A stretch of 36,451 nt of DNA. It comes from a virus. Under the pieces are notes generated by a model. That model did no database searches. It had not been told where the DNA came from and was given only the letters and a program-made list of their open reading frames with translations. This document shows positions 5,349 through 22,674 of this stretch, piece after piece. Location: IMG/VR virus record IMGVR_UViG_3300034957_000044, positions 1-36,451 of that record; one strand, 5' to 3'. The position numbers were made by a program, and so were the translations under genes. Every line of letters begins with the position of its first letter. The stretch's first letter is position 1.

Positions 5349-5948
5349 ATGGCCAGCAACCTGTACGCCGACCTGGAAGAGCTGAAACGAGCTCGGAAGG
5401 TCACCGACACCAACGACGACGTCGACCTCACCGCCGCGCTGCAGCGCGCCTCCCGCGCGCTCGACGAACGTTGCCGCGGCCTGGGCGGCCACTTCTACGC
5501 CGACAGCGTGGCGTCGGCGCGCGGCTACTACACCGCCGACGACGCGTACTACACCCGCAAGGGCGAGGTCCTGGCCGTCGACGACATCTCGTCGGCCGCC
5601 GGCCTGGTCGTGGAGGTCGGCGACGGCACCACCTGGGTGACGGTCACCGGCTACGACCTGGCCCCGGACAACGCGCTCGTGAAGGGCCGCGCCGTCGAGG
5701 GTCTGATCCGGCCGCTGGGCTGCTGGTCGACGTCGCCGCGGGTGCGGGTGACCGCCCTGTGGGGGTGGCCGGCGGTGCCGGACAACATCGCCCAGGCGAC
5801 GCTGCTGCTGGCCAACCGCCGGTTCATGCGCCGTAACTCGCCCGAAGGCGTGGCCGGCTGGGCTGACCAGGGGGCGATCCGGGTGTCCCGGTTCGACCCC
5901 GACATCGAAGACCTGGTCGCCGACTACGTGCTCCCGGGGATCGGCTGA
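5349..5948 (+). CDS. Head-tail connector (gp6-like adaptor)
   Basis: 199 aa from the ATG at 5349, 5 bases after GAGGGAGG (5336-5343). A GTG at 5343 overlaps that ribosome site and is rejected. HK97 gp6-like adaptors attach beneath the portal ring. Features are an N-terminal helix with DDVDLTAALQRASRALDERC (about 22-41), a beta-rich centre, and a C-terminal ALWGWPAVPDNIAQATLLLANRRFMRRNSPEG (about 134-165) typical of the family. The protein ends DLVADYVLPGIG. Its stop overlaps the next start. Confidence 0.75.
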   Translation: MASNLYADLEELKRARKVTDTNDDVDLTAALQRASRALDERCRGLGGHFYADSVASARGYYTADDAYYTRKGEVLAVDDISSAAGLVVEVGDGTTWVTVTGYDLAPDNALVKGRAVEGLIRPLGCWSTSPRVRVTALWGWPAVPDNIAQATLLLANRRFMRRNSPEGVAGWADQGAIRVSRFDPDIEDLVADYVLPGIG

Positions 5949-15966: not shown

Positions 15967-16137
15967 ATGCGCCTGCTCTACCTGCTCCCGCCCATACGTC
16001 GCTGGCGGTACCGCCGCCAGGTCGCCGCGCTGCACGCCGAGCAGCGTGCCTGGCGGCGCCAGGCCACGCAGCACAACGCCGCGGTGGCCCGGATCATCGC
16101 CCAGCCGCACCCGGACCCATGCCGGAACCGGCGATGA
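15967..16137 (+). CDS. Small basic protein, hypothetical
   Basis: 56 aa with a good GGGAGG ribosome site at 15954-15959. Starts MRLLYLLPPIRRWRYRRQVAAL and continues as an Arg/Gln/Ala-rich helix. Its stop overlaps the next ATG (ATGA at 16134-16137), making a three-gene coupled unit. Not recognised. Confidence 0.6.
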   Translation: MRLLYLLPPIRRWRYRRQVAALHAEQRAWRRQATQHNAAVARIIAQPHPDPCRNRR

Positions 16138-16379
16138 GCGAGCCGCTGCACGAGCCTCGCCAGCCGGAGTGGGATTGCAACTCCTGCGAGAAGCCATGGC
16201 CGTGCGATCCAGCACGCGAACGGCTGACTAGCGAAACTGGCGGCGGCACTCTGCTGGCGACGCTGATGGGCGTCCACCTCGAGCACTACGTCGCCGATCA
16301 CCCTGAGGTGCTGGTCGGCGAGGCCTTCGACCGGTTCATTGCGTGGACGCGGCCGATGCCCTTGGGCGGCATGCGGTGA
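16134..16379 (+). CDS. Small CxxC protein with WPC motif
   Basis: 81 aa. Residues about 13-25 carry DCNSCEKPWPC followed by DPARERL, a CxxC-x4-C pattern frequent in small proteins of actinobacterial phages and integrative elements, probably a metal or redox site. The remainder is a helical segment (about 38-70). Coupled by ATGA to the gene before and by GTGA to the gene after. Function unknown. Confidence 0.65.
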   Translation: MSEPLHEPRQPEWDCNSCEKPWPCDPARERLTSETGGGTLLATLMGVHLEHYVADHPEVLVGEAFDRFIAWTRPMPLGGMR

Positions 16380-16687
16380 GCGCCGAGACGGACCGGTTCC
16401 TCGCCGAGCGTGCGGTGCAGCAAGCCGCCGAGCATGCTGAGCGGTTTGCGCTGATGCGGCACAACCGCCGCTTGTTCGCCGAGCGGCTCCATTGGGCCGA
16501 TGGCGTGCTGGCCGCATGCGAGCGGCTCGATGAGGAGTTCCCGGATTGGGTGGCGTTGTGGCGGCCGGCGAATCCTTATCCGGGCTTCGAGCGGCCGGCG
16601 GGCTACGTGATCACCAATGGCGATAGAACGCGGTGGGCGGCCACGCTGGAGGAGCTGGCGTCCTCGCTGCGGTCCTTACCCGGCTAG
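16376..16687 (+). CDS. Hypothetical protein of lysogeny region
   Basis: 103 aa from GTG at 16376 (GTGA overlap with previous stop). The first 60 residues are a charged helix (ETDRFLAERAVQQAAEHAERFALMRHNRRLFAERL). The C-terminal half is a small alpha/beta piece with PDWVALWRPANPYPGFE and a WAATLEELASSLRSL helix. No motif recognised. Its last 12 bases overlap the convergent excisionase-like gene. Confidence 0.6.
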   Translation: MSAETDRFLAERAVQQAAEHAERFALMRHNRRLFAERLHWADGVLAACERLDEEFPDWVALWRPANPYPGFERPAGYVITNGDRTRWAATLEELASSLRSLPG

Positions 16688-16891
16688 GGTCTCGGGCTCG
16701 TCGGGCGGCGGCCGGTGCTCGGCGATCCAGGCCTCGATTTGGTTGCCGTCCCAGATGTATCCGGCGGTCAGTTGCTTGATCGGTTGCGGGAAGTTGGGAC
16801 GGCGCATGAGTTCAGCTAGACGGGTCCGGCCGATGCCGAGACGGTCGCAGACCTCCGCCGCGCCCATAAGCTTGTCGCCCTCGACCAACAC
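16676..16891 (-). CDS. xis: Excisionase-like MerR/AlpA-type HTH protein
   Basis: 71 aa from a GTG at 16891. Residues about 9-62 have the winged-helix pattern of phage excisionase/AlpA proteins: LMGAAEVCDRLGIGRTRLAELMRRPNFPQPIKQL, then GYIWDGNQIEAWIAEH with the conserved W-x(5)-I-x-x-W. Such proteins bend DNA and, in serine-integrase elements, may act as recombination directionality factor or as an activator. Reverse orientation, 260 bp from the next rightward gene, with inverted repeats in between. The role in excision is inferred; serine-integrase RDFs are diverse. Confidence 0.72.
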   Translation of the reverse strand: MLVEGDKLMGAAEVCDRLGIGRTRLAELMRRPNFPQPIKQLTAGYIWDGNQIEAWIAEHRPPPDEPETLAG

Positions 16892-16916
16892 TGCGTGACC
16901 GTATTGGGCGATCTGG

Positions 16917-16947
16917 CTGCATGATCGTGCAGTGCAAGGTCATGCAG
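16917..16947. promoter_or_regulatory. Inverted repeat CTGCATGA-N15-TCATGCAG
   Basis: Perfect 8-bp arms at 16917-16924 and 16940-16947, with further TGCA units inside the spacer, directly upstream of the excisionase-like gene. It could be its operator or part of the recombination region. The local sequence is visibly lower in GC than the genes around it. Confidence 0.4.
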
Positions 16948-16976
16948 TTGACGGGCGACATTGTGTGCTGAGAGCG

Positions 16977-17005
16977 TTGATCGCGCAACTGAGAGTAGAC
17001 AGAAT
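16977..17005 (+). promoter_or_regulatory. Possible promoter TTGATC-N17-CAGAAT
   Basis: -35 TTGATC at 16977-16982 and -10 CAGAAT at 17000-17005 with 17-bp spacing, directed toward the resolvase-like and integrase genes. The -10 matches consensus at 4 of 6 positions. Confidence 0.35.
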
Positions 17006-17020
17006 TAGATGATCGTCTTC

Positions 17021-17045
17021 GTAACATGATCATGCAGAATGTTAC
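17021..17045. promoter_or_regulatory. Inverted repeat GTAACAT-N11-ATGTTAC
   Basis: Perfect 7-bp arms (17021-17027, 17039-17045); the interior contains CATGATCATG, itself a palindrome. It sits in the 261-bp non-coding region between xis-like and resolvase-like genes. Candidate regulator site or part of attP; not resolved. Confidence 0.4.
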
Positions 17046-17152
17046 GCCACCATAACGGGGAGTACCACGCACGGAGGCTAGTACACGAGAGTGAGAGCTT
17101 CCAAGAAATGTGGCTGTGGCGGCAGCTGTGACGGTGTGACATGGGGGAATGC

Positions 17153-17575
17153 ATGATCCGCGCTGTTATCTACATCCCGCCCTACGACGACCTTGACGGC
17201 TACTTCGCGACGAAATGCCAGCGGTACGCCGAGCGCCGCGGCTACCGGGCGCCGGCCCTGATCGCACGGTCCTGGGACACGGTGGAGCGCCTCCTACTCA
17301 ACGGCTGGGCCCAGGTGGCGATCGTGGCCCGGTACGAGCATCGGGAGGGCGCCAGGCTGATCGAACCCGAGGTCGTCGAGCAGGAAGAGCTTGCAACGGT
17401 TGTGATCCTCGACCGTCGGCGTTCGCAGCCGGGACGACACCGGGCTCCCGAAGCCGCCGGCTGGTGCCCGAACGAGCGGCCGAGTCTCGCCGAGCGCATC
17501 ATCGATGACGCGATGCGGCGATGGCGATTCGGCGTCTCGGCGATCCATGTGACCCCGGATAGACGTAACCGTTAA
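17153..17575 (+). CDS. Resolvase-like protein lacking the catalytic serine
   Basis: 140 aa from the ATG at 17153, 4 bases after GGGGGA (17143-17148); an upstream ATG at 17141 sits on that ribosome site. The N-terminus RAVIYIPPYDDLDGYFATKCQRYAERRGYRAPALI and the following WDTVERLLLNGWAQVAIVARYEH can be laid over a serine-recombinase catalytic fold (YxRxS strand, CxxYAxRRGW helix, LLxxxxxGxxDVVVV strand). However, the YxRxS motif is replaced by IYIPPY, so the nucleophile and arginine are absent. It lies 46 bases upstream of the integrase. The fold assignment is tentative; it may be an integrase partner or regulator. Confidence 0.6.
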   Translation: MIRAVIYIPPYDDLDGYFATKCQRYAERRGYRAPALIARSWDTVERLLLNGWAQVAIVARYEHREGARLIEPEVVEQEELATVVILDRRRSQPGRHRAPEAAGWCPNERPSLAERIIDDAMRRWRFGVSAIHVTPDRRNR

Positions 17576-17621
17576 CGACACTTAACCCAGCATCTGTGCC
17601 GTTAGGGGGTACGCTCGGGCC

Positions 17622-19067
17622 GTGACGATGAAGCGGGCTGGCATCTACGGGCGCAACAGCAGCGCGAACGAGAAGAGCATCGCCGACCAGCTGACCCTCG
17701 GCCGTGCCGCCGTCAGCCGCAACGGGTGGATCCTGGCGGGGGAGTACTCCGACGACTCCTCGGCGTCGCGGTACCGGTCGAAGGAGCGCGACGACTGGGC
17801 ACGCCTACTCGCCGACCTGACTGCGGGACAGCTCGATGTCCTCGTCCTCTGGAAGTCGGCCCGCGGGTCGCGTGACGAGGTCGATTGGTTCCTGCTGCTG
17901 CGGGCCTGCCGGGAACGCGGTGTCCTGATCCACGTCATGGCCGACAGGCGCAGCTATGACCCGCGCCTGTCGCGCGACTGGAAGACCCTCGCCGAAGACG
18001 GCGTCGCCTCGGCGTACTACTCCGAGGAGCTGAGCGAGAACGTCCGGCGCGGGATCCGTGAGGCCGCGGTCGCCGGCACTCCACACGGCCGGCCCTCCTT
18101 CGGCTACGACCGGAAGTACGACGGCGATGGCCGACCGCTGCGGGTGCCGAACGAGCACGTGCCGATCGTCCGCGAGCTGTTCGACCGTCTCGACATGCTC
18201 ACCCCGATCAGCGTGTTGGAGAAGGACTTCCAGGCCCGCAACCTTCCCTCCCCGCGCGGCAAATGGAGTCGCCGGACGATCCGCGTTATCGCTGGCAATG
18301 TCGCCTACATCGGCAAACGCCTCTTCGACGGCGAGATTCGCGACGCGCAGTGGCCGGCGATCGTCGACGAGGACGTCTTCTGGCGCGTGCAGCAGCTGCT
18401 CAGCGCGCCGGAGCGGAAGACCACCAGGCCCGGATCGGGGAAGTACCTGCTGTCGTACATCGCCGTCTCGTCGTGCGGCGGCCACGTCGCGCTCGGGTCG
18501 AGGGACCGCTACGGGTGCGACGCCGACGGCTGTACCTATATCCGGCGCGCTGACGCGGATGCTGTGGTCACCGCGCTTATCCTGGCGCGACTCGGCCAGC
18601 CGGATGCTCGCCAGCTCTACGCGCAGAACGACGCTCTAGTCAAGGCGGCCAGGGCGGAGGCGGACCGGTACCGCGTCCAGCTGGAGGAGGCCCGGCGCTC
18701 GTTCGAGCTTCCGGACGGCATTTCGGCAGAGGCGCTGGCACGCAAGGAACATGCGCTCCTGCCGCTGATCCAGGATGCAGACCGCCGATCCCGGGGCGCA
18801 GGCGTGAACGCAGCCCTCGACGAGCTGATCGACGCCGACGACAAGGCGGCGGCGTGGGCGCGGCTGGAGGTGGCGGCACGACGGCAGGTCGTCAAGACAC
18901 TAGCGCGCGTCGTGGTCGGCCGGCCCGCGGGGCGCCTCCGTCGATCGGCCGATGCGGGCGCACGCCTGACCGAGGCGGCGGTCCGGCTCGACGGCAGCAC
19001 CTGGGTCGGCGACTCCCGTACGTGGCGCGAGCTAGGAGGCTTGGTCCTGCCCGAAGAGTCGGCGTAA
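17622..19067 (+). CDS. int: Large serine integrase
   Basis: 481 aa. It integrates the phage at attB and acts with a directionality factor for excision. The catalytic domain (about 1-150) has the nucleophile S13 in IYGRNSS, then DDSSASRYRSKERDDWARLL and LVLWKSARGSRD typical of the actinobacterial group. The recombinase domain (about 165-290) includes GRPSFGYDRKYDGDGRPLRV and GNVAYIGKRLFDGEIRDAQWPAIVDEDVFWRVQQLL. A zinc-ribbon region (about 285-315) has SSCGGHVAL and YGCDADGC; one cysteine of the common four is missing. A coiled coil lies near 340-400. GTG 17622 sits 6 bases after TACGCT, fitting leaderless initiation; ATG 17628 is the alternative. Confidence 0.93.
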   Translation: MTMKRAGIYGRNSSANEKSIADQLTLGRAAVSRNGWILAGEYSDDSSASRYRSKERDDWARLLADLTAGQLDVLVLWKSARGSRDEVDWFLLLRACRERGVLIHVMADRRSYDPRLSRDWKTLAEDGVASAYYSEELSENVRRGIREAAVAGTPHGRPSFGYDRKYDGDGRPLRVPNEHVPIVRELFDRLDMLTPISVLEKDFQARNLPSPRGKWSRRTIRVIAGNVAYIGKRLFDGEIRDAQWPAIVDEDVFWRVQQLLSAPERKTTRPGSGKYLLSYIAVSSCGGHVALGSRDRYGCDADGCTYIRRADADAVVTALILARLGQPDARQLYAQNDALVKAARAEADRYRVQLEEARRSFELPDGISAEALARKEHALLPLIQDADRRSRGAGVNAALDELIDADDKAAAWARLEVAARRQVVKTLARVVVGRPAGRLRRSADAGARLTEAAVRLDGSTWVGDSRTWRELGGLVLPEESA

Positions 19068-19514
19068 ATGCTTGTACTCCTCACGACGCCGCTGGAGATC
19101 GGCGTCGATCCGTTCGATCTGGATCTGCACCAGCTCGGCGCGCTGTCGTTCGGTGAGTCCGGGATCGTTCAGGATCTGCCGGATGACATCGTCCTTGTAG
19201 GGATCGGGGACCGCCGGCTCGACTGCATGGTGGACCGCGAACGACATTGCGCCGGCCTCGACGTACCCCACTCGCGTGAGCAGCTCGATCTGCTCGCTCT
19301 GGGGCAGGCCGAGGCTGTCGAGGACCTGCCTGGCGGACTCGGTGCTGATTTCGGTAGCGCGATTTGCCCAGCGTTCGAGGGTCTTCGTGGTCAGGCCGAC
19401 GCGGCGCGCGAAGGCGCTCTTGTTTCCATGGCCCCTGGGTCCGGGGTCGAACCGGACGATGAGGGCGTTGATCTCCTCAGCCCACGCGTCTCGGTCAATT
19501 CGGCCGCCAAGCAT
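19032..19514 (-). CDS. Phage repressor (CI-like, HTH)
   Basis: 160 aa from the ATG at 19514. The reading frame stays open upstream to 19646, but that extension covers a promoter and operator half-sites, so I reject it. HTH at about 31-56: NKSAFARRVGLTTKTLERWANRATEIS, then STESARQVLDSLGL. The C-terminal half is helical and charged (LTERQRAELVQIQIERIDADLQRRREEYKHL), likely for dimerisation. There is no LexA-type Ser/Lys protease domain, so induction would not be by RecA-driven self-cleavage. A TATAGT -10 ends 6 bases before the ATG, i.e. a leaderless message. Its 3' end overlaps the integrase 3' end by 36 bp, tail to tail. Confidence 0.85.
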   Translation of the reverse strand: MLGGRIDRDAWAEEINALIVRFDPGPRGHGNKSAFARRVGLTTKTLERWANRATEISTESARQVLDSLGLPQSEQIELLTRVGYVEAGAMSFAVHHAVEPAVPDPYKDDVIRQILNDPGLTERQRAELVQIQIERIDADLQRRREEYKHLRRLFGQDQAS

Positions 19515-19520
19515 GGCCAG

Positions 19521-19526
19521 ACTATA
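19521..19526 (-). promoter_or_regulatory. Repressor promoter -10 (TATAGT), leaderless
   Basis: On the reverse strand TATAGT is followed by six bases and then ATG, so transcription would begin at the A of the start codon. No good -35 is present at 17 bp (AATGTC), which suggests a weak, possibly activated promoter. Operator half-sites lie just upstream at 19529-19536 and 19551-19558. Confidence 0.65.
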
Positions 19527-19528
19527 CG

Positions 19529-19562
19529 CGACATGCGTGCCGCGACATTCCGACATGCGTGC
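19529..19562. promoter_or_regulatory. Two operator half-sites (GACATGCGTGC) at repressor promoter
   Basis: GACATGCGTGC occurs at 19530-19540 and again at 19552-19562 (22-bp spacing, about two helix turns). Each shares the CGACATGC half of the palindromic operators at 19662-19760. Position immediately upstream of the repressor -10 fits auto-regulation. Confidence 0.6.
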
Positions 19563-19661
19563 AAGTCGCTGATCAAGGGCTAGATACGGCATTGGTCGAC
19601 CCCTGGCCTTGCGTTGCCGTCGCTTTCTGACGTCGCGGATCGTCATGCATCGAAGAGTAAC

Positions 19662-19677
19662 CCGACATGTATGTCGG
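19662..19677. promoter_or_regulatory. Operator O1: CCGACATGTATGTCGG
   Basis: Perfect 7-2-7 palindrome. The same pattern recurs at 19705 and 19745, defining a consensus CCGACATGyATGTCGG. It lies upstream of the rightward promoter -35. Confidence 0.75.
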
Positions 19678-19701
19678 ACTCAACTCATACGTTCAGGCTA
19701 G

Positions 19702-19730
19702 TTGCCGACACGCATGTCGGGGCCTAGACT
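19702..19730 (+). promoter_or_regulatory. Rightward early promoter TTGCCG-N17-TAGACT, leaderless
   Basis: -35 TTGCCG at 19702-19707 and -10 TAGACT at 19725-19730 with exact 17-bp spacing. The GTG of the Cro-like gene begins 7 bases after the -10, so the transcript would be leaderless. Operator O2 fills the spacer and overlaps the -35, so bound repressor should block RNA polymerase. Confidence 0.75.
19705..19720. promoter_or_regulatory. Operator O2: CCGACACGCATGTCGG
   Basis: One mismatch from a perfect palindrome, located between the -35 and -10 of the early promoter, 43 bp centre to centre from O1. An extra half-site CGACAT is at 19732-19737. Confidence 0.75.
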
Positions 19731-19737
19731 GCGACAT

Positions 19738-20034
19738 GTGAGTACAGACATGCATGTCGCAACTGCCGAGACTCGGGCGGGGGTGTTCCTCAAGACCGAA
19801 CACTTCGCCCTGGTCGCGCGGCTGCTGAACCTGACCTCCGACGTCGCGCTCGGCCGCGCCGTCGGTCTGAACCCGATGACCATAAGCCGCGCACGAGAGG
19901 GCGTCATCGGCGAAAAGTTCATCGCCGCCGTCCTGTCGTACTTCGCCGGCCGCGCCGAGGAACTGGCCAAGTACGGCGTCGGCGCTCGGTTCGACGACCT
20001 CTTCGAGATTGCGCCGAAGCAGGCCGCGGCATGA
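19738..20034 (+). CDS. Cro-like HTH regulator, first gene of early operon
   Basis: 98 aa from the GTG at 19738, chosen because it is 7 bases after the TAGACT -10; a TTG at 19702 would lie inside the promoter. HTH at about 34-57: SDVALGRAVGLNPMTISRAREGVIG, a Cro/XRE pattern. The preceding helix is EHFALVARLLNL and the C-terminus ends YGVGARFDDLFEIAPKQAAA. Divergent from the repressor and leading the early operon, it occupies the Cro position. Operator O3 lies within its first codons, so self-repression is plausible. Confidence 0.78.
   Translation: MSTDMHVATAETRAGVFLKTEHFALVARLLNLTSDVALGRAVGLNPMTISRAREGVIGEKFIAAVLSYFAGRAEELAKYGVGARFDDLFEIAPKQAAA
19745..19760. promoter_or_regulatory. Operator O3: CAGACATGCATGTCGC
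   Basis: Inner 12 bases GACATGCATGTC (19747-19758) form a perfect palindrome matching the operator core. It covers codons 3-8 of the Cro-like gene, 40 bp centre to centre from O2. Confidence 0.7.
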
Positions 20035-20234
20035 CCGGCCCCGTCACCGACCCGCCGCCGAGCGGACCCGGCAAAGACCTGTTCGGCGACTATGCCGAGC
20101 AGCTCGCCACGGTCGGCAGCGAGGTCATCGAGCCGCTCGCCGAGTATCTCGAGCGCGTCGCCGCTGCAGCGCCCCGACTGACCGACGACCAGTACGCGAA
20201 GCTGATTCCGCTCTTCGCACGGAGAGCCGCATGA
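20031..20234 (+). CDS. Small early protein, hypothetical
   Basis: 67 aa; ATGA overlap with the Cro-like stop. Pro-rich N-terminus, then a single helical segment (EQLATVGSEVIEPLAEYLERVAAAAPRLTDDQYAKLIPLFARR). Not recognised. Ends with an ATGA overlap with the next gene. Confidence 0.6.
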   Translation: MTGPVTDPPPSGPGKDLFGDYAEQLATVGSEVIEPLAEYLERVAAAAPRLTDDQYAKLIPLFARRAA

Positions 20235-20692
20235 CCCGCGTCGCTCTGCTCGCCGAGTTCTTCACGCTCGGCCGTGACCAGCTTGCCGCCGTGCGCGTCG
20301 ATTCGGACCCGTACCGCCGTGCCCTGCTGGACATCGCCGTCTCCCGCGCCGAGGACGTGCTGGCGACGCTGACCCAGCTCGGCGCCGAGTCTCCGGCCCG
20401 CCGGGATTCCTTGGCCCCGCCCCAGGGCCTCGGGGTCGCTACGCCCGGCGGGCCGGTCGACTCCGGCCGGGGCGGGGAGGGACCGGGGTCAGAGCCGGTC
20501 CGCCCCGGCCGGTTCTCCCTGCCGCTGCGCCCGGCGGTGCCGCGTTTCGAGTCGGACCCGCCGATGCCGCTGCCGCCGCCCTCACCTGGCCCGCCGCCGC
20601 CTCCGGTACCGCCGCCGCCGAGCGCGATCCCGCTGGGCGTCGGCGCGCTGTACGACCCGCTGATCGGCGCCCGACGGGCGCCGACGACCTGA
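20231..20692 (+). CDS. Early protein with Pro-rich tail, hypothetical
   Basis: 153 aa from the ATG at 20231. N-terminal ~55 residues are helical (MTRVALLAEFFTLGRDQLAAVR, then LLDIAVSRAEDVLATL). The C-terminal 60% is disordered and Pro/Gly-rich, with PMPLPPPSPGPPPPPVPPPPS near 116-136. The Pro-rich stretch resembles ligand segments for WW- or SH3-like domains or a simple linker. Unknown function. A long hairpin follows the stop. Confidence 0.6.
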   Translation: MTRVALLAEFFTLGRDQLAAVRVDSDPYRRALLDIAVSRAEDVLATLTQLGAESPARRDSLAPPQGLGVATPGGPVDSGRGGEGPGSEPVRPGRFSLPLRPAVPRFESDPPMPLPPPSPGPPPPPVPPPPSAIPLGVGALYDPLIGARRAPTT

Positions 20693-20700
20693 ACGAAGAA

Positions 20701-20729
20701 GCGGGCCGACCCCTCGCCGGGCGGCCCGC
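20701..20729 (+). terminator. Hairpin GCGGGCCG / CGGCCCGC
   Basis: Perfect 8-bp arms at 20701-20708 and 20722-20729 directly after the stop at 20692. No T-tract. It may attenuate between the immediate-early genes and the longer early operon. Confidence 0.5.
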
Positions 20730-20770
20730 CAACCGGATCAAGACCTCCCCGATGAGAAAGGACCGATCCG

Positions 20771-21685
20771 ATGACCACGACGGTACGCGAGACCCGGCGG
20801 GCCGCCGAGCTGAAGCCCGGCGACTGGCTGATCGACGACGAGAAGGGCAACCGGAACCCCAACGAGGTGATGGCCGCGTTCCAATACCCGACCGCGGACG
20901 GCATGTGCGTGCATCTGACGACGCAGGTGCCGGGCGAGAACCCGTACTCCGCGGGCAACATCCCGCTCGACTTGGCGTTCGAGTTGGCCACCGAGGCTGA
21001 GCTGGCCGCGCTGCGCGAGGCGGCCGACCGCGCCAGGTTCGCTGCTGGTCTGCGGGAGTTCGCCGACTGGATTGGGGCCAACGGGTGGGCGCCGGTCGGG
21101 TGGGACGGCTGCGGATTCCAGCACGCCCGGGTCCAGGTCGACCTGCATGGATCCGACGAAGATGCCACCGCCGCGACGGTGTCCAGGATCCGTGATCTCG
21201 CGGATCGGCTCGGCGTGAAGACGCAGGAGTTGGATGACCGCACCGACGCGAGCGTCGTGATCGGCGCCGTCTCGTACTCGGTGATCGCCTGGCACAGGAA
21301 CGGACGCCCGGCTGAGCCGAACAGGTGCGTGGCGTCGCTGCACATTACGGCGCAGACCGCTGACGCGCGCTGCTTTCGTTGCGGTGCTGCCGGCGTTGTC
21401 GCGGCGTATGAACCCGCGGCGGACCCGACCGGCCTGGCCTACTCCCGCGCCGACGACGAGGCCGACGACCCGACGCCGGTGTCCCCGGCCCGGGTGCCGC
21501 TGCACACCGGCGGCGTGGTGGACGGCGTCGGCCTGGTCGACGAGACCGACGCGCCGCTTCCGAAGTGCCTGCCCGGTTGCCGCCGCACGGACGAGGAGTA
21601 CGGCAAGGGCTCAAGCACTCACGCCGACGGTTGTCCGGAGTGGGCGGCGATGAAGGCGCGCGAGACCGAGAGCGAGGCCCGCTGA
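20771..21685 (+). CDS. Hypothetical early protein with two Cys motifs
   Basis: 304 aa with AGAAAGGA ribosome site at 20754-20761. N-terminal domain (about 1-75) begins TRRAAELKPGDWLIDDEKGN, a small beta-rich pattern. A middle alpha/beta region (about 95-175) reads HARVQVDLHGSDEDATAATVSRIRDLADRLGV. Near 195-210 is a CFRCG motif, and near 280-295 CLPGC...HADGC, both possible metal sites. Acidic linkers join them. I recognise no function. First gene of a chain of overlapping early genes after a hairpin. Confidence 0.7.
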   Translation: MTTTVRETRRAAELKPGDWLIDDEKGNRNPNEVMAAFQYPTADGMCVHLTTQVPGENPYSAGNIPLDLAFELATEAELAALREAADRARFAAGLREFADWIGANGWAPVGWDGCGFQHARVQVDLHGSDEDATAATVSRIRDLADRLGVKTQELDDRTDASVVIGAVSYSVIAWHRNGRPAEPNRCVASLHITAQTADARCFRCGAAGVVAAYEPAADPTGLAYSRADDEADDPTPVSPARVPLHTGGVVDGVGLVDETDAPLPKCLPGCRRTDEEYGKGSSTHADGCPEWAAMKARETESEAR

Positions 21686-22119
21686 TGGCCGCCTTCCTGG
21701 TCTGGTCGAACGATCACCGCATGTGGTGGCGGCCAGGCCACCGCGGCTACACCGAGTTTATCGACGAGGCCGGCCGCTACGCCCGGGCCGAAGCGGAGAA
21801 GATCGTCGCCGGCGCCACCATCAACGGGCAGCTCACCGTCCGGCGGACGGACCCGGTGACCGGCCGGGAGTACAGCCAGCTGTCCGAGGTGCTGGTGGCC
21901 GCCCCCGAGGACATCCCCCTGGCGACCGCCATTCGGCTGGTGATCGTCCGGACCGACGACGAGCACCTGACCGTCGAGGTCGACGGCGCCGAGGTCGCCC
22001 ACGCCAACCACGACGAGCACGGCTGGTCCGGCATGGACGCCGTCGAGAAGACAGCGCGGGGCATTGCCGAGGCGGCCGGGCTGGCCATCAACGAAGAGTG
22101 GCGGGAGAGCGAGTCCTGA
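21685..22119 (+). CDS. Hypothetical early protein
   Basis: 144 aa, TGATG overlap with the previous gene. Starts MAAFLVWSNDHRMWWRPGHRGYTEFIDEAGRYARAEAEKI, a pattern often seen in actinophage small proteins. The rest is a beta strand/helix mix with acidic DDEHLTVEVDGAEVAHANHDEHGWSG. No catalytic motif visible. Confidence 0.65.
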   Translation: MAAFLVWSNDHRMWWRPGHRGYTEFIDEAGRYARAEAEKIVAGATINGQLTVRRTDPVTGREYSQLSEVLVAAPEDIPLATAIRLVIVRTDDEHLTVEVDGAEVAHANHDEHGWSGMDAVEKTARGIAEAAGLAINEEWRESES

Positions 22120-22352
22120 TGCCCGCCGAGGTGAAGCGCGATCCGCTCGGGATCGTCTACGACACCAGCTACGAGGACGCCGACGGAACCGTGCACTACA
22201 CCCGGCACCAGGCGGGCGGCACCGCGGGCGGCCCGGCGCGCTGGTCGTCAGAGCACGACTGCAACCCGATCTGCGGCTGCCACCTCGCCTCGAAGTGCCT
22301 GGGCTGCGGGGTGTGCATGACCTGCGACGGCTGCTACTGCGGGGAGGTCTGA
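22119..22352 (+). CDS. Cysteine-rich small protein
   Basis: 77 aa. The last 35 residues hold nine cysteines, from HDCNPICGCHLASKC through LGCGVCMTCDGCYC, consistent with a multi-zinc or iron-sulphur-type site. The N-terminal half is beta-like (KRDPLGIVYDTSYEDADGTVHYTRH). Overlaps neighbours by TGATG at both ends. Function unknown. Confidence 0.65.
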   Translation: MPAEVKRDPLGIVYDTSYEDADGTVHYTRHQAGGTAGGPARWSSEHDCNPICGCHLASKCLGCGVCMTCDGCYCGEV

Positions 22353-22573
22353 TGGCGCCCGAGCGGTGCGAGATCGCGACGCTGGACGGCCTCGCCCGGA
22401 TCGCCGACGACGCGGTCGACGTCCGGCAGTGCACCGATCCGCCGACGCACGACGTGACCGTGCGACGCAGCAGTGTCCTCGTCCACGCACGGATCTGCGA
22501 CAGCCACACCGCGGCGTTGCGCGGGGAGGACGGCTACATCTGCGCGGTCCGGCTGGACGCCTGCATCACCTGA
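22352..22573 (+). CDS. Hypothetical small protein
   Basis: 73 aa with a good GGGGAGG ribosome site at 22340-22346. Contains four spaced cysteines (C6, C27, C49, C64) and a histidine in DSHTA, possibly one zinc. Overlaps the previous stop. Two strong hairpins follow. Confidence 0.6.
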   Translation: MAPERCEIATLDGLARIADDAVDVRQCTDPPTHDVTVRRSSVLVHARICDSHTAALRGEDGYICAVRLDACIT

Positions 22574-22577
22574 GACC

Positions 22578-22626
22578 CGGCGCGGCGGGACGAGTCACCT
22601 CTCAACTGTTCGATCCCGCCGCGCCG
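22578..22626 (+). terminator. Perfect 13-bp inverted repeat, first of two
   Basis: Arms CGGCGCGGCGGGA (22578-22590) and TCCCGCCGCGCCG (22614-22626) with a 23-base loop, immediately after the stop at 22573. GC-rich stem without T-tract. Confidence 0.5.
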
Positions 22627-22674
22627 CCCAAACCGCCGGACGGGTCACGGCCCCCGATTCCGCCCGGCACCTCC

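What the first reader, a model, noticed from the sequence alone, without database searches (positions are those of the whole stretch)
19514..19760. Divergent immunity switch with palindromic operators and two leaderless promoters
Three near-identical 16-bp palindromes with consensus CCGACATGyATGTCGG (19662, 19705, 19745) lie between a repressor and a Cro-like gene. O2 sits inside the 17-bp spacer of TTGCCG-N17-TAGACT. Both genes start 6-7 bases after their -10 hexamers, so both messages would be leaderless. Leaderless repressor mRNA is known from lambda pRM; a switch leaderless on both sides with this operator looks distinctive.
Basis: partly seen in the sequence, partly recalled or inferred. 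Interest (0 to 1): 0.85.

Follow-up and report, generated by a model that had tools for sequence, protein, structure and literature searches.

The report
Phage switch with two-start leaderless repressor
This is the lysis-or-lysogeny switch of an unnamed, GC-rich (probably actinobacterial) phage: its control sites are real and conserved, and in at least four phage lineages the repressor gene carries two tandem promoters, each placed exactly at a start codon, so the phage probably makes a long and a short repressor from messages that have no leader.

Summary
The sequence observation holds. The palindromes at 19662, 19705 and 19745, the TTGCCG-N17-TAGACT promoter with O2 in its spacer, and both start codons 6-7 nt after a -10 hexamer are all present. 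The operator core occurs nowhere else in the contig.

The reading needs three corrections.
(1) O3 lies inside the cro gene, and two weaker operators (19528-19543, 19550-19565) sit at the repressor promoter.
(2) A third leaderless promoter was missed. O1 fills the spacer of TTGAGT-N18-TACTCT, 7 nt before ATG 19646, the start of an in-frame 204-aa repressor. ATG 19514 starts a 160-aa form from its own promoter and operators.
(3) A switch leaderless on both sides is not new: phage PY54 has one mapped by RACE.

Four homologous contigs (three further lineages, 26-34% repressor identity) keep all three starts (15 of 15; background about 0.3-1%). A position weight matrix made only from two of them ranks the window's three operators top. 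The 43-47-codon extension is conserved as protein in three of four lineages.

Best explanation: a cI/Cro-type divergent switch whose repressor is made as two isoforms by tandem, separately operated leaderless promoters. This is a new variant of a known kind. Transcription starts and DNA binding are untested.

The parts
17622..19067 (+). Serine integrase; its 3' end overlaps the repressor 3' end by 36 bp (convergent)
   Evidence: Pfam Resolvase 1.2e-16 and Recombinase 3.4e-07; phrog_95 integrase 6.5e-64
19032..19646 (-). Repressor, long form (204 aa, ATG 19646) with a basic 44-aa N-terminal extension
   Evidence: Homologues at 26-34% identity that include the extension; phrog_3949 'transcriptional repressor' matches all 5 members, best 1.2e-10 (window member alone only 0.013)
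19032..19514 (-). Repressor, short form (160 aa, ATG 19514)
   Evidence: TATAGT-N6-ATG; the equivalent in-frame internal start has TANNNT-N6 in all 5 contigs and in pMLP1
19521..19526 (-). -10 (TATAGT) of the internal repressor promoter P2
   Evidence: no clear -35
19528..19543 (.). O4, degenerate operator one nt upstream of the P2 -10
   Evidence: ranks 5th in the whole window with a PWM made from other phages
19550..19565 (.). O5, degenerate operator 22 bp from O4 (L018 has the same 22-bp tandem pair)
   Evidence: 14th in the window, weak on its own
19654..19659 (-). -10 (TACTCT) of the outer repressor promoter P1, 7 nt before ATG 19646
19678..19683 (-). -35 (TTGAGT) of P1, 18-nt spacer
19662..19677 (.). 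O1, operator in the P1 spacer
   Evidence: tied second in the window
19702..19707 (+). -35 (TTGCCG) of P_cro
   Evidence: TTGC conserved in L018, L036, L108
19705..19720 (.). O2, operator in the P_cro spacer, 4 nt upstream of the -10
   Evidence: same 4-nt gap in L018 and L036
19725..19730 (+). -10 (TAGACT) of P_cro
19738..20034 (+). Cro-like HTH protein (98 aa, GTG start 7 nt after the -10)
   Evidence: phrog_3642 HTH 2.3e-06; homologues at 26-47% identity
19745..19760 (.). O3, operator inside cro codons 3-8 (encodes part of DMHV, conserved in L018)
   Evidence: top hit in the window
20031..20234 (+). Small ORF overlapping the cro stop codon, function unknown
   Evidence: phrog_24177 5.3e-05

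Best explanation
This is a cI/Cro-type lysis-lysogeny switch. Repressor and a small Cro-like HTH protein are divergently transcribed and (inferred) bind a palindromic operator, CCGACATGYATGTCGG. Three promoters each carry the operator just upstream of the -10, across the spacer: P_cro (O2, plus O3 inside cro), P1 (O1) and P2 (O4/O5). Each -10 lies 6-7 nt before a start codon, so all three messages should begin at or next to the start codon. P1 makes the 204-aa repressor. P2, inside the reading frame, makes a 160-aa repressor without the basic N-terminal arm. A bound protein should exclude RNA polymerase from P_cro (lysogeny) and from P1 and P2 (negative autoregulation by the repressor, or takeover by Cro), so the two isoforms can be set separately by operator affinity. 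Shown here: sequence elements, homology, conserved spacing, conservation of the extension as protein. Inferred: transcription starts, who binds what, and the role of each isoform.
For: Three further lineages (L018; L036; L108 and its near twin L109) share divergent repressor and cro genes. A scan for TANNNT-N5..8-RTG opening at least 50 aa finds exactly three starts per contig in all five, all with N6 or N7. The background for N6/7 is 22 of 2144 ORF starts including those 15, so about 0.3% without them. A PWM from L018 and L036 operators ranks the window's O3, O2 and O1 as its top three sites, 18-20 bits against 11.7 for the next. GACAYNNRTGTC occurs only in the switch in three phage records (3, 5 and 3 sites). 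L108 and L109 were found by protein, not by operator; their sites have drifted to CGGGCAYGTATGCCCG but sit in the same places. Residues 2-27 of the extension are conserved between window, L018 and L108 (z 5.6-7.9 against shuffles). L108 against L109 differ there by 4 synonymous and 1 conservative change (dN/dS about 0.08).
Against: No transcript or binding data. P2 has no clear -35. O4 and O5 are degenerate in the window. The extension of L036 is basic but not alignable (z below 1.5), and its second start is GTG. A weak 3-nt Shine-Dalgarno match precedes ATG 19646. L018 and L036 were found with an operator pattern, so their having operators is partly by construction (their -10s, starts and proteins are not). 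The structure models have no significant PDB match.
Confidence: 0.7

Rival explanations
1. Only the short repressor (P2, ATG 19514) is made; P1 drives a leadered message for the same protein and the upstream open frame is incidental.
For: Cluster F mycobacteriophage repressors have one leaderless-type start at the equivalent of the short form. The extension is poorly conserved in L036.
Against: ATG1 lies exactly 6-7 nt after a -10 in all five contigs. The extension is conserved as protein in three lineages outside the operators and looks under purifying selection between L108 and L109 (only five changes).
Confidence: 0.15
2. Only the long repressor is made; the operators inside its 5' coding region act as an internal roadblock to elongation (stoperator-like) and the TANNNT before ATG 19514 is incidental.
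For: O4 and O5 lie downstream of P1 inside the transcribed region; P2 has no good -35. Roadblock repression is known for the L5 repressor (PMC4557955).
Against: TANNNT-N6-[AG]TG in frame is kept at the homologous place in all five contigs and in pMLP1. The short start matches the only start of the cluster F repressors.
Confidence: 0.1
3. The messages are not leaderless: transcription starts farther upstream and the -10-like hexamers are chance.
For: No 5' ends mapped; the strict sigma-70 scan reports none of these promoters.
Against: 15 of 15 starts against about 0.3% background; TTGC..-N17/18-TA...T is kept for P_cro in four lineages with operators in the spacer.
Confidence: 0.05

Closest known systems
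Yersinia telomere phage PY54 immB (PMC4488713)
   Same: Divergent cI and cro, both with RACE-mapped leaderless mRNAs; 16-bp palindromic operator.
   Different: Gammaproteobacterial lambda-like proteins; one species of cI mRNA; no internal promoter or second isoform reported; Cro binds one site only.
Mycobacteriophage BPs int-rep-cro cassette (PMC4557955)
   Same: Integrase-repressor-Cro gene order; operator CGACATATGTCG has the same CGACAT half-site and lies between the -35 and -10 of PR.
   Different: Two repressor forms there differ at the C terminus through attP inside rep, not at the N terminus; sites are also dispersed in the genome; integrase direction relative to rep differs from the window.
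Streptomyces phage phiC31 repressor (three isoforms: PMC4557955; that they are in-frame and differ at the N terminus is from memory)
   Same: One repressor gene makes several in-frame proteins that differ at the N terminus.
   Different: Binding sites dispersed over the genome; repressor not in a divergent repressor/Cro arrangement. Whether those messages are leaderless was not checked.
Cluster F mycobacteriophages (Spartacus, Avani, Frankie)
   Same: Weakly related repressor (32-34% over half the protein); operator abuts TAGACT-N6/7-GTG of a leaderless-type repressor start.
   Different: One repressor start only; the annotated cro start has no leaderless geometry; different operator (GCTTGCGTGCACGCAA).
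Micromonospora phage pMLP1
   Same: Distant repressor and cro homologues; leaderless-type cro; in-frame internal TACGGT-N6-ATG inside a longer repressor frame.
   Different: The outer repressor start is not 6-7 nt after a TANNNT hexamer; different operator.

Membership tests
cI/Cro-type divergent immunity switch | Divergent HTH repressor and small HTH Cro with shared operators between them | tested here: met
   Gene order and operators; conserved in four other contigs. The HTH assignment of the window repressor alone is weak (YdaS_toxin 0.014, HTH_3 0.069)
cI/Cro-type divergent immunity switch | Repressor and Cro bind the operators and repress each other | not testable with these tools
   needs EMSA/footprint and reporters
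Switch leaderless on both sides (as PY54) | -10 6-7 nt before both start codons, no Shine-Dalgarno | tested here: met
   (sequence only; a 3-nt SD match precedes the long-form start)
Switch leaderless on both sides (as PY54) | 5' ends mapped at the start codons | not testable with these tools
   no transcript data
BPs-type integration-dependent immunity | int and rep co-directional with attP inside rep, so integration removes a C-terminal tag | tested here: inconclusive
   In the window int is convergent with rep and overlaps it by 36 bp; in L018 and L108 int follows rep co-directionally. attP was not located
phiC31-type repressor | Many operator sites dispersed over the genome | tested here: not met
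   All GACAYNNRTGTC sites lie in the switch in three records
phiC31-type repressor | Several in-frame N-terminally different repressor proteins | tested here: inconclusive
   Two conserved starts with their own promoters; proteins not observed

The most novel reading that the evidence does not exclude
A lineage of high-GC, probably actinobacterial, phages controls lysogeny with a two-isoform repressor made by two nested leaderless promoters, each with its own operator. The start codon used is then chosen entirely by promoter choice, and the basic N-terminal arm gives the long form a separate role, for example establishment against maintenance.
Probability: 0.5. Interest if true: 0.62.

Novelty: new variant of a known kind. 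Interest (0 to 1): 0.48.

Why it matters
Leaderless translation ties the start codon to the transcription start. Nesting two leaderless promoters in one frame would let a phage make two repressor proteins without any translational choice, and let each be tuned by its own operator. If true, it is a compact natural switch in which the isoform ratio is directly readable from 5' ends, and it explains why gene callers may miss or misplace repressor starts in such phages.

Tried and rejected
Close relatives of the window proteins: none in phages, plasmids or 85k genomes by single-sequence search, except a 100%-identical contig with no comparative value and one weak Rhodococcus plasmid hit to cro. 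Integrase relatives L007-L009: no homologous immunity genes. The first pattern hits other than L018: paired 20-bp palindromes in large phages and other sites, not divergent switches. Most hits of the looser pattern: arrays of GACATGGGTGTC and other sites without rep or cro homologues; only L036 kept. Structure: repressor model pLDDT 67, Cro 77; no significant PDB match, so no structural claim is made. L036 extension as a conserved sequence: rejected. ARAGORN found no tRNA near L036, L108 or L018.

Full report
What was checked. The window is a 36,451-bp virus record with portal, major head protein and a serine integrase. GACAYNNRTGTC occurs three times, all within 100 bp, and shuffled windows average 0.17 with no cluster of three.

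What was missed. O3 is inside cro, not between the genes. On the minus strand the repressor frame is open from 19514 up to ATG 19646. That ATG has its own promoter, TTGAGT-N18-TACTCT-N7-ATG, and O1 fills its spacer. The ATG at 19514 has TATAGT-N6 and two degenerate operators just upstream (O4 19528-19543, O5 19550-19565). So there are three promoters, not two, and two in-frame repressor starts 44 codons apart.

Relatives. Single-sequence protein searches found no informative relative. A two-operator DNA pattern over viral contigs found L018, with homologous cro (45%) and repressor (32%) and a serine integrase after the repressor. A looser pattern found L036, where the repressor and cro again diverge and an integrase that looks like a tyrosine recombinase lies downstream (by eye, not scanned against a library). 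A profile of the three repressors found L108 and L109, near twins with what looks like a tyrosine integrase right after the repressor (also by eye). L108 and L109 were found by protein alone, and their operators have changed to CGGGCAYGTATGCCCG at the same places.

The leaderless pattern is conserved. A scan for TANNNT, 5-8 nt, then ATG or GTG opening at least 50 aa finds exactly three starts in each of the five switch regions: repressor long, repressor short and cro, all with 6 or 7 nt. Across all sequence from these phages that was scanned, 22 of 2144 such ORF starts have this geometry, 15 of them these. None of the searches used -10 hexamers or start positions, so this is an independent test. 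Spacing between operator and -10 is also kept: 2 nt at P1 in window, L018 and L036; 4 nt at P_cro in the same three.

The operator is conserved. A matrix built only from L018 and L036 operators ranks O3, O2 and O1 as the best three of the whole window (18-20 bits; next 11.7), O4 fifth and O5 fourteenth. In three records GACAYNNRTGTC occurs only in the switch. In L018 the internal promoter also has two operators 22 bp apart, as in the window.

The extension is a protein. Residues 2-27, outside the operators, are alike in window, L018 and L108 (z 5.6 to 7.9), with a shared pattern M-x-[IM]-R-x-[VL]-R-[KR]-R ... R-P-x-P-x-L. L108 and L109 differ there by four synonymous and one Lys-Arg change. 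L036 keeps the length and basic character but not the sequence.

How it most likely works (inferred). A protein bound at O2 and O3 blocks P_cro, giving lysogeny. Binding at O1 blocks P1, and at O4/O5 blocks P2. As the message of each promoter should start at or next to its start codon, P1 yields the 204-aa repressor and P2 the 160-aa one. Different operator strength at P1 and P2 would set the isoform ratio. Which protein binds which site, and what the basic arm does, is unknown.

What is known. PY54 is leaderless on both sides by RACE (PMC4488713). [quoted passage not shown] coli messages encode prophage regulators (PMC4681348). BPs has the same gene order and the CGACAT half-site (PMC4557955). 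phiC31 makes three repressor isoforms (same paper). Annotated cluster F mycobacteriophages have a leaderless-type repressor start with an abutting palindrome, and pMLP1 and a Rhodococcus plasmid show leaderless-type starts on both sides. No paper describing that was found in eight searches of the open-access library, which is not proof that none exists.

Limits. Host is inferred only from GC content and the hosts of distant relatives. No whole-genome survey was possible. L018 and L036 were selected for operators. The twelve independent starts come from only four lineages.

Noticed in passing
L010, L012, L013, L015, L016, L017, L021: GC-rich contigs (up to 157 kb) carry pairs of near-perfect 20-bp palindromes CTGTGACATGCATGTCACAG about 37 bp apart, apparently near gene ends, and single copies elsewhere in L012 and L015; same GACATGCATGTC core but not at a divergent repressor junction.
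   Followed up: partly
L035, L042, L051, L058, L060, L075, L078, L099 and others: Many unrelated viral contigs carry arrays of GACAYGGNTGTC-like units, often spaced 22-24 bp; nature unknown.
   Followed up: no
L022 5947-6240 (Rhodococcus sp. DMF-1 plasmid plas-2): The annotated cro start (5995) is probably 16 codons too late: an in-frame ATG at 5947 lies 7 nt after TACAGT.
   Followed up: partly
L028 3460-4029 (Micromonospora phage pMLP1): The matching reading frame lies in a record region annotated 'excisionase'/integrase in AY150027, but it is a repressor homologue next to a divergent cro-like gene.
   Followed up: partly
window 19032-19067: Serine integrase and repressor genes are convergent and overlap by 36 bp; in L018 and L108 the integrase instead follows the repressor in the same direction, and the integrase type differs between lineages.
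   Followed up: partly
L036 255-340: A sequence resembling part of a tRNA lies between the tyrosine-type integrase and the repressor, perhaps attP; ARAGORN calls no complete tRNA.
   Followed up: partly
window 16035-22646: 100% identical over 6.6 kb to another IMG/VR contig, 3300035084_000014.
   Followed up: yes
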